A stretch of DNA of 64,000 nt from Candidatus Saccharimonadota bacterium (GCA_017437945.1 JAFRWP010000004.1:62001-126000); one strand, 5' to 3'; numbered from the stretch's first letter, positions 49,067 to 55,217 are shown. Made by a program: numbers and translations. Notes: a model not told the origin generated them from the letters alone.

Positions 49067-49729
49067 CTAGTTACCAATGATGCCGAAGGCATTAATTGGG
49101 TTGGCTGGCGCAGTGTTTTCAAAGGATTGTTCTTTTCTTATCATGCCATTATCAAGACAAAGGGTTGCGCCTCCCTCGAGGTAGATGCGCATAGCAAACG
49201 CATGGACGCCGGCGGATTTTCCCATTTTATCGTTAAATACTTCGCCATCACACATCGCTACGTCGTCGTATTGGATATCACCAACTTCCATTTTCGCCCA
49301 CTTGCTGTTTGGTGACCGGCCGACGGCGGTCTCATCGTAGCCATTACGTTGGAATGTTTGGCCAGTTATGCAGTTGTACGCAACTTTTACGTTCCATAGA
49401 GCAGCTTTGTATGGTTCGCCCGTACTAGGGTCTTTCATGTCTGCGGGGACATATTTTTTGTAGAATGTGCAAAAACCATTCTTTTTATTGAAAGCTTGGG
49501 TCTTATTGCCATTATCAGTCACGCTAATATTAGAGTTATGGATGCGCCATTTATCCATTTGGGCAACAATTAAAGAGAGATCGCGACGGCGTTGAGTATT
49601 GCGCTGTCCTCTCTGGAGGGCCGGCAAAGCAAGCAGCACCATGACCATGATTAGGCCAGCGACGGCGAGAACTAGCACGACCTCGATTAGGGTGAAGCCT
49701 TTTTTCTGTTTTTTCATCCTGAGTCGCAT
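49067..49729 (-). CDS. type IV pilin-like protein
   Basis: A prepilin signature KKGFTLIEVVLVLAVAGL (Glu at mature position 5) and a hydrophobic helix (to about residue 35) are followed by a soluble domain with several cysteines (GFCTFYKK, YNCITGQTF, VAMCDGEVF, ATLCLDNG) that could form two disulfides. 220 residues. It is the last gene of the sortase/pilin run, but belongs to the type IV pilus system. An AAGGG SD lies about 9 bases before the ATG. Confidence 0.88.
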   Translation of the reverse strand: MRLRMKKQKKGFTLIEVVLVLAVAGLIMVMVLLALPALQRGQRNTQRRRDLSLIVAQMDKWRIHNSNISVTDNGNKTQAFNKKNGFCTFYKKYVPADMKDPSTGEPYKAALWNVKVAYNCITGQTFQRNGYDETAVGRSPNSKWAKMEVGDIQYDDVAMCDGEVFNDKMGKSAGVHAFAMRIYLEGGATLCLDNGMIRKEQSFENTAPANPINAFGIIGN

Positions 49730-49745
49730 ATTGTATTACCCTTCC

Positions 49746-50540
49746 CTATTCAGATTCTTCGCGCGGTATCATCTTTAATAGTATCACATTACGGTAATGG
49801 TTAGCATCTTTGTCGCAGGTGGATAGAAGTAATAGTTTATCGTTTGGGGAAACTTCGGTATCACGACTATTTGTAATATCGGAGCCAAACAGGCTAATCA
49901 ACTGGTCGTAGCTTGCGTTGCGGTATAGGCGCATGTTGTAGATTTGGGTTTCGCTCACATTTGGACGCGCAGCAAGAATAAGCTCAAGATCATAGGTTTG
50001 ATCTGGGGTGTAGAATACGCCAGTTTCGTGGGTGTTAAAGAAATCACGATCAGAGTACTTCCCTACGCTCGAAAACATTTTGTCGCCACTCATGCGGTGG
50101 CCATAGATGACCGTGTAGTTGTCTTTTACACCGTCATTGCGATAATCAATAAATGCGGCGCCAGCAGTGGCATATTCGCCACGATAATTGCGTGTGAGAT
50201 ATTTGATATTATCTTTGTCGTACCAAACGACTGGGAAATCAATTAGTGTACCATCGATGCGCAGCCAGGCAACAATATCTGAGTTGATTTCTCCTAATTC
50301 GTCAAAAGAGTGTTCAGGTTTTGCTGAAATATTATTGGCGATAGCGGCAACTTCATCGTCTAGTTTAGCGCTGGCATCTACTTTTTGAGCATCAATAAGG
50401 GCATAAACACCGATGAGCGCAATAAATACGAACGCCGAAAAAGCAGCAGCGTCAATACAGCGCTCAAAAATGTCGCGAATTATGTCCAGGATTCTGTTCC
50501 TATATATCCCTGGTCCTGAGGATACTGATAACTTTCCCAT
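49746..50540 (-). CDS. class-B-like sortase
   Basis: Membrane-bound transpeptidase. A membrane helix (about 28-52) precedes the sortase domain with AAFIDYRNDGVKDNYTVIYG, the catalytic His in YGHRMSGDKMF, Cys in LLLSTCDKD and Arg in HYRNVI. The long insert and the FIDYRN motif point to class B. In Streptococcus pyogenes a class-B-type sortase polymerises FctA pili; neighbouring pilin genes suggest the same here. 264 residues. Its 5' end overlaps the SipA-like gene by 41 bases. Confidence 0.9.
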   Translation of the reverse strand: MGKLSVSSGPGIYRNRILDIIRDIFERCIDAAAFSAFVFIALIGVYALIDAQKVDASAKLDDEVAAIANNISAKPEHSFDELGEINSDIVAWLRIDGTLIDFPVVWYDKDNIKYLTRNYRGEYATAGAAFIDYRNDGVKDNYTVIYGHRMSGDKMFSSVGKYSDRDFFNTHETGVFYTPDQTYDLELILAARPNVSETQIYNMRLYRNASYDQLISLFGSDITNSRDTEVSPNDKLLLLSTCDKDANHYRNVILLKMIPREESE

Positions 50541-51018
50541 ATATTGTTTCTTTTTTTATTGCTCCATACTCACGTGAATCACCTTTTGAATCGAGGTTGT
50601 CATTAATGACAAAGAACGTGTCTTTTTCGACGCGATACGGGTAAGACATGGTGACCTCATCGCCGCGCGAAATATTATAGGCCGGAATATCCGAGAATTC
50701 CTCCCCGTTTAGGTAAAGGTGACCTTCTTCATCAAGCGAAATAACATCATTTTCGACGCCAATAATGCGAGAGACGTACTGCTTATCGTCTTTCGAGAAT
50801 AAAACTACATCGCCTGCCTCGAGATTGTCATTCGTGCGGAAAAAAAGCGAAAGGTCGCCATCGGATACTTTTGGATCCATGGCGACGCCTTCTATCCTAC
50901 GAATTCCAAATAGAACACCAAGAATAATCCAGAAAATCAGCACGAGTACGACTAGCTTAATGCCTAAGCGTAGCCATTCTTGTTTTGGGGATACTTTTTT
51001 AAATTCAGGGTGTTTCAT
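50500..51018 (-). CDS. SipA-like signal-peptidase homologue lacking the catalytic dyad
   Basis: A membrane helix (about 19-39) precedes a type I signal peptidase fold: GVAMDPKVSDGDLSLFF, AGDVVLFSKDDKQYVSRIIG, YLNGEEF and FFVINDNLDSKGDSREYG. The catalytic Ser of the S-x-M-x-P box is Ala46 (VAMDP) and the Lys of the K-R-x-x-G box is Ser83 (YVSRIIG), so no peptidase activity is expected. SipA of S. pyogenes pilus loci also lacks both residues yet is needed for pilus assembly. 172 residues. It sits between pilin and sortase genes, supporting the same chaperone-like role. Confidence 0.85.
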   Translation of the reverse strand: MKHPEFKKVSPKQEWLRLGIKLVVLVLIFWIILGVLFGIRRIEGVAMDPKVSDGDLSLFFRTNDNLEAGDVVLFSKDDKQYVSRIIGVENDVISLDEEGHLYLNGEEFSDIPAYNISRGDEVTMSYPYRVEKDTFFVINDNLDSKGDSREYGAIKKETIYGKVISILRTRDI

Positions 51019-51069
51019 CTTTTGTTTTTGTTTGTTTTTTGTTGGTTTTAGTGATTTTACGCTAATGGA

Positions 51070-52131
51070 TTATTTTTTAATTACGAGAATTGCGCCGGCA
51101 ATACCAATGATGGTAATGATAGCGAATGGTAAGAGCGAACTAACGATGCCAGTACGTGGAGTTATCTCTTTCATATTAAGCACGGTCGTTCGATTGCTCT
51201 TCTCGAAATCAGATTCATCTTCGCCTACGGTTGTTTTCACGATGGATGTTTTATTATCGGTCGTGGAACCGTCGATGAAGGTTTTATAGTCTGCAGCACC
51301 TTCTTCAATAACGACATAGCGCAAGCCGATTGGGATTTGATTCAAATTATTGGAGTCTTTACCAATTGTGGCTACATCACCATTTTTTAGATACACGGTG
51401 ACAATATTGCTACCTGTTATTTCGTCTGCGGTCAACATGGCAAGGTTATTCTTGCAAGTTGAGTCGGTCTTAACTTTATAGACCTTATCGTCATTGTTAT
51501 CGAAATGCACATTAATTTTAAAGCACTCGTTTGGATCGGCGGAATTGCCTTTAGTTTGTACTTTTACGTCTATATATGTGCGATCCGATGCGCCAGAACC
51601 GAATATAATCATATTACCGTCTGGGCCATCTACGACTTTATCACCATTAGAGTTTGTCGCGGCACCAGCCAGCACGGCGTGTTCCCCAGTAGGAACACCG
51701 CCGCTGCCGGTGACGTTGCGCACCGAGAACCAAATCGTATAGGACTCGGTGCTCAAAGGATATTTAATAGGATTAGTCGTTGCGGTTTCTTTTACTATGA
51801 AACCGTAATCTCCGAGCTCAGTAAATACTGCGCTCGAGAAATCGATTGTCCCTGTATAGGTTGCTCTTCCGCCGGTCGGAGTCACATCGTTGAATACGAT
51901 AGTGGTCGTAGCAGGGACTCCTTCTACGGCTGCCGGGTTAGAAGAATCAGCAGTAATCGTATACGTGAAAGTGTTATTCACATTACCAGATGCATCATTG
52001 ATTTCCTTTAGGATAGTATATGATGCCGAGTCTGCTGGGTTGGCCGACCAAGCGCTAGCATTCGCGAATGGAATGAGCGTGGTGGCTAGAATTGCTCCGG
52101 CGGCTATGATTGATAATGCTTTACACTTCAT
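51070..52131 (-). CDS. Spy0128/FctA-like pilin with sortase signal (TPRTG)
   Basis: Secreted pilin of 353 residues. Signal peptide (1-27), an FctA-type isopeptide domain (about 35-165: YTILKEI, TFTYTITAD, GDYGFIVKETATT, YTIWFSVRN, with Lys, Glu and Asn placed as for internal isopeptide bonds), a second beta domain (about 185-310) and a C-terminal sorting signal TPRTG, hydrophobic helix and basic end. It is a paralogue of the product at 52145. Confidence 0.88.
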   Translation of the reverse strand: MKCKALSIIAAGAILATTLIPFANASAWSANPADSASYTILKEINDASGNVNNTFTYTITADSSNPAAVEGVPATTTIVFNDVTPTGGRATYTGTIDFSSAVFTELGDYGFIVKETATTNPIKYPLSTESYTIWFSVRNVTGSGGVPTGEHAVLAGAATNSNGDKVVDGPDGNMIIFGSGASDRTYIDVKVQTKGNSADPNECFKINVHFDNNDDKVYKVKTDSTCKNNLAMLTADEITGSNIVTVYLKNGDVATIGKDSNNLNQIPIGLRYVVIEEGAADYKTFIDGSTTDNKTSIVKTTVGEDESDFEKSNRTTVLNMKEITPRTGIVSSLLPFAIITIIGIAGAILVIKK

Positions 52132-52144
52132 TGTATTGCCCTAA

Positions 52145-53212
52145 TTACTCAGTAACTTTTTTGGTCTTAGCAACATAAGCTGCGCCGAAGATACCAATCA
52201 AAGCGATAATGATGAATGGCAGGATCGAGAAGACGACGCCAGTGCGTGGTGGGGTCTCTTTGTGGTTTACGATGTTGATGCGGTTAGCAGTGTTGAAAGT
52301 TGAAGCTCCGGCATCAACTAAAGTCTTCATTGCAGAAGTCTTGCTATTAGTGGTGGAACCATCGATGAAGGTTTCGTAATCGGTTGCGCCCTGCTCTTCG
52401 GCCTTGAAGGTGGAACCAAGTGGAATTTCATTGATGTTATTGTTTCTACCAATCGTGATAGTTTCATTGTGCTTAATATAGACAATGGTATCACCGTTGC
52501 CGGCTACAGCAGCTGGCTGATCTGGACAGGTGGAACCAGAGATAGAATAGCTAAGGCCTGCACCGCCAGCTAAGGAAAGCTTAACACCGAAACATGCATC
52601 TTCATCGGCGTTGTTACCGGTTACTTGCTTGGTAAGAGTTGCATAGGTGCGAACTGCGCCAGCATCGAAGACAACTTCAGTGTCGTTACCAAGGATGGTT
52701 GTAAGCTTATTAGTGGCGCTGTATTCTTTCACAGAACCAAGAGTGGCTACGTGCTCACCAGTTGGGGCACCAGAGCTAGTTTCGTTACGAACGGAAACCG
52801 TTACAACGTATGACTTAGTGCTAGTTGGGTAGCTAGTAGTGTCAGTACTACCAGTTTCAGTGATGGTGAAGTTGTAATCACCGACCTTAGTGAAGACGGC
52901 TGATGAGAAATCGAGATCAGCGGTCTTGACGGCAGTATTGTTTGTAGGTGCTACGTTGTTGAAAACAATCGAAGCTGCGGTTGGATAACCAGAGACAGCA
53001 GCAGGGTTATTTGTCGTGTCTGCTGAGACCGAATATGTGAACGTGTTGGTTACGTTATTGGAGGTATTCTTAACTTCACGTTTAATTGTGACCTTTGAAC
53101 CGTTGCCTGAAACTGGGCTGACTGTCCACGCGCTAACATTTGCGAGTGGTGCTAGAGCTGTTGCGAACATCGCGCCAACTGCGGCTAACATTGATAATTT
53201 CTTTATTTTCAT
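52145..53212 (-). CDS. Spy0128/FctA-like pilin with sortase signal (PPRTG), paralogue
   Basis: 355 residues with the same layout as its neighbour: signal peptide (1-28), FctA-like domain (about 38-170 with VTIKREV, TFTYSVSAD, GDYNFTITETGSTD, YVVTVSVRN), a second domain with paired cysteines (DACFGVKL, GSTCPDQ) and PPRTG sorting signal. Both share IDGSTTNSKTS/IDGSTTDNKTS. The codon use is more regular than in the neighbour, as for a highly expressed major pilin (inference). SD GAAAGG precedes the ATG. Confidence 0.9.
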   Translation of the reverse strand: MKIKKLSMLAAVGAMFATALAPLANVSAWTVSPVSGNGSKVTIKREVKNTSNNVTNTFTYSVSADTTNNPAAVSGYPTAASIVFNNVAPTNNTAVKTADLDFSSAVFTKVGDYNFTITETGSTDTTSYPTSTKSYVVTVSVRNETSSGAPTGEHVATLGSVKEYSATNKLTTILGNDTEVVFDAGAVRTYATLTKQVTGNNADEDACFGVKLSLAGGAGLSYSISGSTCPDQPAAVAGNGDTIVYIKHNETITIGRNNNINEIPLGSTFKAEEQGATDYETFIDGSTTNSKTSAMKTLVDAGASTFNTANRINIVNHKETPPRTGVVFSILPFIIIALIGIFGAAYVAKTKKVTE

Positions 53213-53255
53213 TTTATTTTGACCTTTCTTTTAATATCCTCTCTTTTTTAAATTA

Positions 53256-55217
53256 TTACTTCCTCCGGCTTACGATGATAGCGCCACCTCCTATGACGGC
53301 TACAACTATAAGCCCGATGAAGACGATTGTATTTTTTGCTACGACACCGGTGACAGGATCTGGTTCGTCGAATTCCTCAACATCGTAGCTTGCTGAGGCC
53401 TTATATTCTTTGGAAGTATCAAGATAATTATTGTTATCCGCAAGTGCACCAATCATTTCGACAGTATTCGTAATGGTGCCCGCTTCGATTTCGTGGTTTT
53501 CAATAGAACTATATACAATTGCGCAAGATGGATTGGCTACGCTTCCGGCAGGGATACTATCAATTTTTATAATTGAAGGTGCCGGTAGCTCTGTCGTTAA
53601 CGGTGAGTTGTCGGTGCTCAGGGTTGCACCGTCAGTAAACCCTGCGCCATCGAGGAGTTCTTGAAGGATGACGTCGTGAATCGGGTAAGCCGCAGTATTG
53701 CAAAGTGTAATCTTAAAGTCGACTATGTCCTCATATTTATATGAACCTTGAGGGTTAACAACTTCCTTTGAGATCGTCGGCGAGAATAGGCCAGTTTGGA
53801 GACCCCATTCACCATAGATAGCAACATCGTTTTCTGGCATTACAAAAGTTTCGCCCTTATACCAACCGAGGAAGCGATAACCATTCGCAGTTGGATCGGC
53901 AGCTCTAGTAACTACGTCACCAGGATAATATGACTGTGTGGCCGGTAAGAGAGTTTCAGGATTTGGAGGAATAACTGAGCCTTCAAATTGATAGCTGACG
54001 GTATAGCTGATACGTTCGTAGAGACCGCAAATATTAACATTGTGTGCTGGCATTACGAAACCAGTGCCAGCAGACTCCATACTATCTGAACAGTGAGTAT
54101 CAACCGTCGCGCTTTCTGGCATAATGCGCCAGCCACTAAAATGATAGCCATCATATGTGCCAGCTTCGGTAGAATCCGTAGAAACTTCTGCTCCGGCAGC
54201 ATAGCTGTGCTGTTTTGGAGGAACGGCCCAGCTAGGTAGATTTGCAGCACGTTCTTCATCGGTTTCACCTTTGCCCTCTACGCGGTAAGAAACCTGGTAT
54301 TGAGTTGGGGCAGGTGCAGCAGTCCAGATACCCACGAATGCCACATCGTGATTTGGCATAGTATAGGTACCGTCACCACCAACCGTAGCATCAGTAGTAG
54401 TCCAACCACTAAATGTATAACCTTCCATTACTGGGTTTGGTTCTACATAGGCGGTAGCGCCAGTATAGTAAGATTGTTCGCCCGGTGCGCTTGGTGCGCC
54501 AGCAGGAATATCGCCAGTGTATGCGTAAGTAACTTGATGTTGATCAGATTCGTTAAGGAGATCGCCCATGAATACGTGTACCGTATTGGAGCGAGCAGTG
54601 ATGTCACCTTCTTTTGCAAAGGCAGTATTATAGAAATCGCGGCGATGCTCAGTTTCAGTAGTTTCTGGATCATCTACAGTCGCCGGGGTGCGCGTAATAA
54701 CACCAACCGTCAAGACGCAGCCCGCTTTGAGACGAGTCACATAGAAGGAGACTTCTCGAGTAGTCGAATCGTAATGGAGGCCATGATAAGTAAACTCAGT
54801 GCCATTCCATGAACCTTCCGTAAGACTTTGTTCGTGGGTATCATCTATGACGCTACCGCCGCAGGCTTTAGTAGCATCACCACGCTGAACAGCACCAAAC
54901 GTACCATCATCACTTGTTACAAAACCTACAAACGTTAGGCCTTTCGGTAAAGTATCAGTAACCTTGATGCGATCACTAAGCACCTCTGCCACCTGGGTTT
55001 CGCCAGACTGAGTACCAGTAACATCAACACCGTCGTATTTAACATGAAGATAATAAGTCAATAAGGAATCTTTTTCGACTTCATCGCCATCTTCAAGATC
55101 GTCTGCTCTGGTGATAATTGCGACAGCAACAAAAGTAGATGCAATAACTAATACAGCGATAGCAGCAAGAAATTTGTGGAAAAAGCCCATATGAGCAAAT
55201 CTTGTTCGATTTGGCAT
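53256..55217 (-). CDS. SHIRT-repeat adhesin with sortase signal (DPVTG)
   Basis: Probable tip adhesin of 653 residues. A signal helix (about 10-33) is followed by an N-terminal domain (about 45-215), three repeats resembling SHIRT domains (about 220-300, 305-395, 400-475), each with GY-x-F-x-GW and a MP-x-x-DV ending (GYTFSGWTTTDATV, GYHFSGWRI, GYRFLGWYKGETFVMPENDV), a DUF11-like domain (about 480-610) and DPVTG sorting signal plus membrane helix. SHIRT repeats project adhesive tips in streptococcal proteins. SD GAGG before ATG. Confidence 0.85.
   Translation of the reverse strand: MPNRTRFAHMGFFHKFLAAIAVLVIASTFVAVAIITRADDLEDGDEVEKDSLLTYYLHVKYDGVDVTGTQSGETQVAEVLSDRIKVTDTLPKGLTFVGFVTSDDGTFGAVQRGDATKACGGSVIDDTHEQSLTEGSWNGTEFTYHGLHYDSTTREVSFYVTRLKAGCVLTVGVITRTPATVDDPETTETEHRRDFYNTAFAKEGDITARSNTVHVFMGDLLNESDQHQVTYAYTGDIPAGAPSAPGEQSYYTGATAYVEPNPVMEGYTFSGWTTTDATVGGDGTYTMPNHDVAFVGIWTAAPAPTQYQVSYRVEGKGETDEERAANLPSWAVPPKQHSYAAGAEVSTDSTEAGTYDGYHFSGWRIMPESATVDTHCSDSMESAGTGFVMPAHNVNICGLYERISYTVSYQFEGSVIPPNPETLLPATQSYYPGDVVTRAADPTANGYRFLGWYKGETFVMPENDVAIYGEWGLQTGLFSPTISKEVVNPQGSYKYEDIVDFKITLCNTAAYPIHDVILQELLDGAGFTDGATLSTDNSPLTTELPAPSIIKIDSIPAGSVANPSCAIVYSSIENHEIEAGTITNTVEMIGALADNNNYLDTSKEYKASASYDVEEFDEPDPVTGVVAKNTIVFIGLIVVAVIGGGAIIVSRRK

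What the first reader, a model, noticed from the sequence alone, without database searches (positions are those of the whole stretch)
49746..55217. Streptococcus-like FctA/SipA/sortase pilus module in a Patescibacterium
Two Spy0128/FctA-like pilins, a class-B-like sortase and a signal-peptidase homologue with both catalytic residues replaced (Ala46, Ser83) sit in one run with a SHIRT adhesin. In S. pyogenes, the FctA pilus is built by a class-B-type sortase and needs SipA, a signal-peptidase-like protein that also lost its dyad. The shared, odd combination argues that a dead signal peptidase is an essential part of this assembly type and that the module was exchanged between Firmicutes or Actinobacteria and Patescibacteria. 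It may provide attachment to the bacterial host.
Basis: partly seen in the sequence, partly recalled or inferred. Interest (0 to 1): 0.75.

Follow-up and report, generated by a model that had tools for sequence, protein, structure and literature searches.

The report
Streptococcus-type pilus genes in a Saccharibacterium
A tiny gut bacterium of the Saccharibacteria carries a complete set of genes for the chemically welded pili known from group A streptococci, including the odd 'dead enzyme' helper, and its relatives carry second copies in which that helper is shrunken or missing, which offers a natural experiment on what the helper does.

Summary
On the minus strand, 49746-55217 encodes a repeat-domain surface protein, two pilins, a signal-peptidase-like protein and a class B sortase. 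The signal-peptidase-like protein has Ala46 and Ser83 where active enzymes have Ser and Lys; by sequence and predicted fold its closest solved relative is S. pyogenes SipA. The pilin's closest folds are Spy0128/T-antigen pilins, and its only invariant lysine (Lys169) aligns with Spy0128's pilus-linking Lys161. The catalytic Lys is absent from all 29 canonical homologues of the genus, and pilin-SipA-SrtB order holds wherever the contig covers it. Within the order the sortase is found in only 2 of 143 genera sampled, and the same genes occur in Lachnospiraceae, so horizontal exchange is likely; direction is unresolved. 'Dead peptidase is essential' is weakened: a second pilus locus in the same genus has a 72-105 aa mini-SipA or none, while its pilins keep the linking lysine. 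Unexpectedly, that second locus often carries in-frame UGA codons in pilin and sortase, often replacing an invariant Trp, while the frame stays under purifying selection: probable UGA readthrough. New variant of a known kind; that a polymer forms, SipA's role and host attachment are inferred.

The parts
53256..55217 (-). ADH: 653 aa secreted surface protein, Flg_new/InlB B-repeats + DUF11, C-terminal sorting-like signal DPVTG; probable tip (or anchor) subunit
52145..53212 (-). PIL2: 355 aa FctA-like pilin, sorting signal PPRTG; predicted fold closest to Spy0128
52706..52708 (-). Lys169 codon of PIL2: aligns with Spy0128 Lys161 (inter-subunit linkage), invariant in all pilins examined
51070..52131 (-). 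PIL1: 353 aa FctA-like pilin, sorting signal TPRTG
50500..51018 (-). SipA-like inactive signal peptidase I homologue, 172 aa, N-terminal membrane helix
50881..50883 (-). Ala46 codon at the position of the catalytic Ser of signal peptidase I
50770..50772 (-). Ser83 codon at the position of the catalytic Lys of signal peptidase I
49746..50540 (-). SrtB: class B sortase, 264 aa, invariant His148, Cys242 (LSTC) and Arg250
49067..49729 (-). type IV prepilin-like protein immediately downstream (16 bp), same direction; not conserved next to other SipA loci, so probably not part of the module

Best explanation
49746-55217 is an operon for a sortase-assembled covalent pilus of the class B sortase/SipA type (as GAS FCT-2/3/4 and pneumococcal PI-2). 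Pilins PIL1/PIL2 are secreted by Sec and their signal peptides cut by the separate active signal peptidase I of the genome (shown to exist; role inferred). SrtB cleaves the P(R/V)TG sorting signals and joins the Thr to Lys169 of the next pilin (inferred from the alignment with Spy0128 Lys161). The SipA-like protein has lost both dyad residues and acts without catalysis, most likely as a membrane-bound scaffold presenting pilin to SrtB (inferred from GAS). ADH is the likely tip protein. The module entered the ancestor of this gut Saccharibacterial lineage by horizontal transfer or was exchanged with Bacillota; direction unresolved. Binding to host bacteria is plausible but not shown.
For: SipA: best PDB sequence hit is S. 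pyogenes SipA (2.4e-18; best true SPase 6.5e-9); AF2 model pLDDT 82, top Foldseek hits 4n31 A/B (2e-10, 1e-9), ahead of SpsB and E. coli LepB. Dyad: Lys position is S/A/G/L in all 29 canonical genus homologues, Ser position S/A/G/V/N; the genome has a separate SPase I with GGSMENT and IIKRV. Module: pilin(s)-SipA-SrtB at the genus SipA loci where the contig covers them. SrtB: TIGR03064 above cut-off, invariant His/Cys/Arg, on the pilus-type side against B. anthracis/Listeria SrtB (100/100). Pilin: top 16 Foldseek hits are GAS Spy0128/T-antigens, then PitB, PitA and Cpa; Lys169 aligned to Lys161 and invariant in 27/27 and 25/25 second-locus pilins. Distribution: 2 of 143 genera sampled in the order; Bacillota relatives with tip-SipA-pilin-SrtB.
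Against: No expression or microscopy data. PIL1 has no PDB sequence hit and neither pilin hits Pfam's FctA family. The Spy0128 isopeptide pair of domain 1 is not kept (Arg45/Ala184 in PIL2). Tip versus base assignment of ADH is a guess. The SipA scaffold role is itself unproven in streptococci (pull-downs negative, PMC4049620), and the second locus manages with a remnant or no SipA. Saccharibacteria and Bacillota SrtBs are separate groups with only moderate support (77/84), so transfer is inferred from patchiness, not from nesting.
Confidence: 0.8

Rival explanations
1. The module anchors single pilin-like proteins to the cell wall (classical SrtB role) rather than polymerising them.
For: Class B sortases of B. 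anthracis/Listeria type anchor monomers; in GAS, without SipA, only monomeric backbone pilin is found in the wall (PMC4049620).
Against: SrtB separates from heme-type SrtB; a single invariant Lys lies at the Spy0128 acceptor position in all pilins; pilin fold is that of polymerising pilins.
Confidence: 0.15
2. The SipA-like protein is still an active, unusual peptidase that uses other residues.
For: Peptidase_S26 fold and DSR..G box kept.
Against: No Ser or Lys other than Ser148 of the structural DSR box and a membrane-helix Lys21 is (nearly) invariant across homologues; replaced dyad residues are not needed in GAS SipA (PMC4049620).
Confidence: 0.03
3. The module is an old vertical heritage of Saccharibacteria lost in most lineages, not horizontally acquired.
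For: Saccharibacterial SrtBs form one side of a branch against Bacillota (77/84; 100/99).
Against: SrtB matches in only 2 of 143 sampled genera of the order, both in one family; closest outside relatives found are gut Bacillota.
Confidence: 0.2

Closest known systems
S. pyogenes FCT-2/3/4 pilus (Cpa-SipA/LepA-FctA-class B sortase-FctB)
   Same: Class B pilus sortase, FctA/Spy0128-fold pilin with the linking Lys at the same aligned place, SipA-like dead signal peptidase, all in one operon
   Different: Order is adhesin-pilin(s)-SipA-SrtB; two pilins; PRTG/PVTG sorting signals; tip-like protein is B-repeat/DUF11; domain-1 isopeptide residues lost; a conserved Cys pair in pilin domain 2
Pneumococcal/oral streptococcal pilus islet 2 (PitA, PitB, SipA)
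   Same: Pilin model also matches PitB and PitA; a signal-peptidase homologue is required for assembly there too (PMC7900414)
   Different: Weaker fold match than to Spy0128; different tip protein
Lachnospiraceae loci L130-L141 (tip - SipA - pilin - SrtB - basal-like protein)
   Same: Closest non-Saccharibacterial SipA relatives retrieved; no SipA of this group keeps the Lys, apart from L138, which keeps both Ser and Lys and lies outside the SipA clade
   Different: SipA lies before the pilin, as in GAS; pilins keep the domain-1 Asn

Membership tests
SipA/LepA (inactive SPase I-like pilus assembly protein) | S26 signal-peptidase fold with N-terminal membrane helix | tested here: met
   PF10502 71.9 bits; AF2 + Foldseek top hit 4n31
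SipA/LepA (inactive SPase I-like pilus assembly protein) | Loss of the Ser-Lys dyad | tested here: met
   Ala46/Ser83; Lys never present in 29 genus homologues
SipA/LepA (inactive SPase I-like pilus assembly protein) | Groups with known SipA apart from active SPases | tested here: met
   Clade with Spy SipA and Lachnospiraceae SipA 95/91
SipA/LepA (inactive SPase I-like pilus assembly protein) | Required for pilin polymerisation | not testable with these tools
   needs expression of the module with and without the gene
Class B pilus sortase | Class B profile and His/Cys/Arg active site | tested here: met
   TIGR03064 160.5 bits over 153.75 cut-off; H148, C242, R250 invariant
Class B pilus sortase | Closer to Spy0129 than to heme-type SrtB | tested here: met
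   100/100 split from B. anthracis and Listeria SrtB; placement inside the pilus side only moderately supported
FctA/Spy0128 pilin | Two-domain Spy0128 fold | tested here: met
   Foldseek E 6e-17 to 3b2m/3gle; top 16 hits GAS backbone pilins; model pLDDT 77, pTM 0.55
FctA/Spy0128 pilin | Pfam FctA profile match | tested here: not met
   Only DUF7601 (and sub-cut-off TIGR03786) found
FctA/Spy0128 pilin | Acceptor lysine equivalent to Lys161 | tested here: met
   Lys169 aligned, invariant in 27/27 and 25/25 pilins
FctA/Spy0128 pilin | Intramolecular Lys-Asn isopeptide pairs in both domains | tested here: not met
   Domain 1 Arg45/Ala184; domain 2 pair present in PIL2 (K195/N316), absent in PIL1
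SHIRT-domain adhesin | SHIRT domain | tested here: inconclusive
   30.3 bits over the 22.4 cut-off for the whole protein but no single stretch passes and it overlaps stronger Flg_new repeats
Active signal peptidase I | Ser-Lys dyad | tested here: not met
   the genome's active enzyme is elsewhere

The most novel reading that the evidence does not exclude
In this Saccharibacterial genus a second copy of the pilus module is built without a full SipA (a 72-105 aa membrane helix plus a few strands, or nothing), so the peptide-binding cleft is dispensable; and its pilin and sortase are gated by in-frame UGA codons read through as tryptophan, a locus-specific translational switch on pilus production acquired at several different positions.
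Probability: 0.45. Interest if true: 0.82.

Novelty: new variant of a known kind. Interest (0 to 1): 0.62.

Why it matters
SipA is essential for streptococcal class-B-sortase pili but its role has stayed unknown since its structure was solved. A distant lineage that keeps the same trio, plus natural SipA variants reduced to a membrane helix and a few strands or lost altogether, tells which part of SipA can matter. It also adds sortase-built pili, little described for these bacteria in the papers found here, to the possible tools with which ultrasmall epibiotic bacteria touch other cells. If the UGA readthrough is real it would be an unusual regulatory use of a stop codon, confined to one surface-structure locus in a bacterium with an otherwise standard code.

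Tried and rejected
A first, naive readthrough test was swamped by antisense frames and replaced by a gene-based one. Genome-wide reassignment of UGA was considered and rejected: RF2 is present and TGA ends 118 of 790 genes. A suppressor tRNA was looked for and not found: no tRNA with anticodon UCA among the tRNAs found in G026, tRNA-Trp is CCA with an ordinary D-arm; in G000 only the 30 best of 43 tRNA matches were given to ARAGORN. Simple pseudogenisation of the second locus is disfavoured because the in-frame stops are TGA (one TAA, in G016, whose locus lies at a contig end) and downstream codons are under purifying selection. UGAs near the N-terminus of SrtB in L111-L115 may lie before the real start and were not relied on. 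An apparent frameshift in the SrtB of L125/L126 proved to be intact divergent genes. A Firmicutes-centred search was not accepted by the tool. The type IV prepilin at 49067-49729 was considered part of the module and rejected for lack of conservation.

Full report
What is there. The window lies in a 952 kb, 99% complete genome of a Saccharibacterial lineage: three loci retrieved from a named collection and close to this genus are labelled Candidatus Saccharibacteria, two of them from water-buffalo omasum and sheep ileum. On the minus strand 55217-49746 runs ADH (653 aa) - PIL2 (355) - PIL1 (353) - SipA-like (172) - SrtB (264), closely packed; SipA and SrtB overlap by 41 bp if the first ATG is used. 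SrtB is a class B sortase above the curated cut-off. The SipA-like protein is a Peptidase_S26 member. The pilins carry DUF7601; PIL2's only good PDB sequence relatives are Spy0128 and the T3.2 pilin, and PIL1 has none. ADH has Flg_new/InlB-type repeats, DUF11 and a weaker SHIRT match. Both pilins and ADH end in sorting-like signals.

Is the signal peptidase dead? Position 46 is Ala and 83 is Ser. Across 29 canonical homologues in the genus the Lys position is Ser, Ala, Gly or Leu and never Lys, while the Ser position varies. The only conserved Ser is the one of the structural DSR box and the only nearly invariant Lys is in the membrane helix, so no substitute dyad is conserved. By sequence the nearest solved structure is S. 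pyogenes SipA, nine orders of magnitude ahead of real signal peptidases, and the AF2 model gives the same answer. The genome has a separate signal peptidase I with both catalytic residues. In a tree the SipA-like proteins form a supported clade with Spy SipA and Lachnospiraceae SipAs (95/91); the one Lachnospiraceae protein that keeps Ser and Lys (L138) falls outside it. That SipA lacks the dyad, that the replacing residues are not needed, and that SipA accompanies class B sortases was already shown in S. pyogenes (PMC4049620).

Does it build a polymer? The predicted PIL2 fold is closest to Spy0128 and other GAS backbone pilins, then PitB, PitA and Cpa; SpaA-type pilins are far behind. In Spy0128 Lys161, on an omega loop, is the inter-subunit linkage (PMC7900414). 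The HMMER alignment puts PIL2 Lys169 on Lys161, and it is the only lysine invariant in 27 canonical pilins; it is also kept in 25 of 25 pilins of the second locus. The domain-1 isopeptide pair of Spy0128 is not kept in PIL2 or most genus pilins; in domain 2, 13 pilins have a Cys pair without the Lys-Asn pair, 6 the reverse, 1 (PIL2) both and 7 neither, suggesting, without control for relatedness, that a disulfide may replace the isopeptide bond. SrtB separates from heme-type SrtB with 100/100.

Where does it come from? Of 295 genomes of the order (143 genera), only two genera of one family gave SrtB matches at E<=1e-30; within the genus 43 of 45 genomes have matches. The closest outside SipA relatives retrieved are Lachnospiraceae with the GAS-like order tip-SipA-pilin-SrtB-basal, whereas this genus has adhesin-pilin-SipA-SrtB. 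Saccharibacterial and Bacillota SrtBs are separate groups, so transfer is likely from the patchiness but its direction is open.

A second locus changes the argument. The same genome (L067) and at least two dozen relatives carry another pilin-SrtB locus. In many of them the SipA is cut to 72-105 aa: alignment shows the membrane helix, the first strands and the last strand kept, and the cap domain, the DSR box and, in many, the Ser loop gone. These strands correspond in part to the membrane-associated sheet of SipA described in PMC4049620. The mini genes evolve under purifying selection (pN/pS about 0.2-0.3 in close pairs). In L116, L117, L119, L123, L124 and L126 pilin and SrtB lie next to each other with no SipA hit between them. 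All these pilins keep the linking lysine. So a complete dead signal peptidase cannot be essential to every FctA-class B pilus, unless these loci make only anchored monomers or borrow the SipA of the first locus; neither could be excluded.

In-frame UGA in the second locus. Its SrtB has in-frame TGA in about 18 of the genus genomes; one locus at a contig end has TAA; the canonical loci have none. In a test over 832 genes of about 60 genus loci, homology-spanned internal stops were 25 TGA, 23 of them in second-locus pilin or SrtB, against 5 TAA and 2 TAG that do not look like real cases. In SrtB the TGA sits at a Trp that is invariant in all other copies in five genomes, and at a second site in six; eight pilins share one TGA after the signal peptide. 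Sequence after the TGA keeps the catalytic Cys and purifying selection at saturated synonymous divergence (pS about 0.85, pN about 0.3-0.4). The base after internal TGA is never T in 21 cases, against 30 of 98 for terminal TGAs (p 0.002, not corrected for relatedness). TGA is a normal stop in the genus, RF2 is present, tRNA-Trp is CCA and no UCA tRNA was found in G026. The best reading is inefficient readthrough by tRNA-Trp limiting pilin and sortase output; long-lived decay is the alternative. The window's own locus and its genome's second locus have no such codon. From memory, bypass of an amber codon has been proposed for CS3 pili of E. coli, a distant precedent. No paper on this in Saccharibacteria was found.

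Verdict. Observation confirmed; identity of the parts well supported; pilus function and SipA role inferred from GAS; 'essential' weakened; exchange likely but undirected. The value lies in the new lineage and in the natural SipA variants.

Noticed in passing
L068-L073, L107-L118 (second pilus locus in genus relatives); own copy L067:9274-11275: In-frame TGA codons in pilin and SrtB (and a few mini-SipA) genes, often at invariant Trp, frame conserved beyond: probable UGA readthrough confined to this locus.
   Followed up: yes
L067:9959-10177 and orthologues L068, L070-L073, L107-L115, L120, L122, L125: Mini-SipA of 72-105 aa: membrane helix plus first strands and last strand, cap domain and DSR box deleted; some genomes have none.
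   Followed up: yes
Genus pilins (window 51070-53212 and L036-L063): A Cys pair in pilin domain 2 occurs mostly where the Lys-Asn isopeptide pair is missing (13 Cys only, 6 isopeptide only, 1 both, 7 neither): possible disulfide-for-isopeptide swap.
   Followed up: partly
window 49067-49729 (-) and L065:18732-19328 (+): Type IV prepilin-like gene directly downstream of SrtB; a very similar copy lies on another contig of the same genome.
   Followed up: no
L067:11402-13024 and relatives (540 aa ORF): A 540 aa ORF of constant length, resembling a membrane glycosyltransferase by eye, lies next to the second-locus pilin in several genomes.
   Followed up: no
G026:C16:1954 and C21:1811: Two tRNA-Trp(CCA) genes differing by one base in the T arm; may be strain variation in the assembly.
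   Followed up: partly
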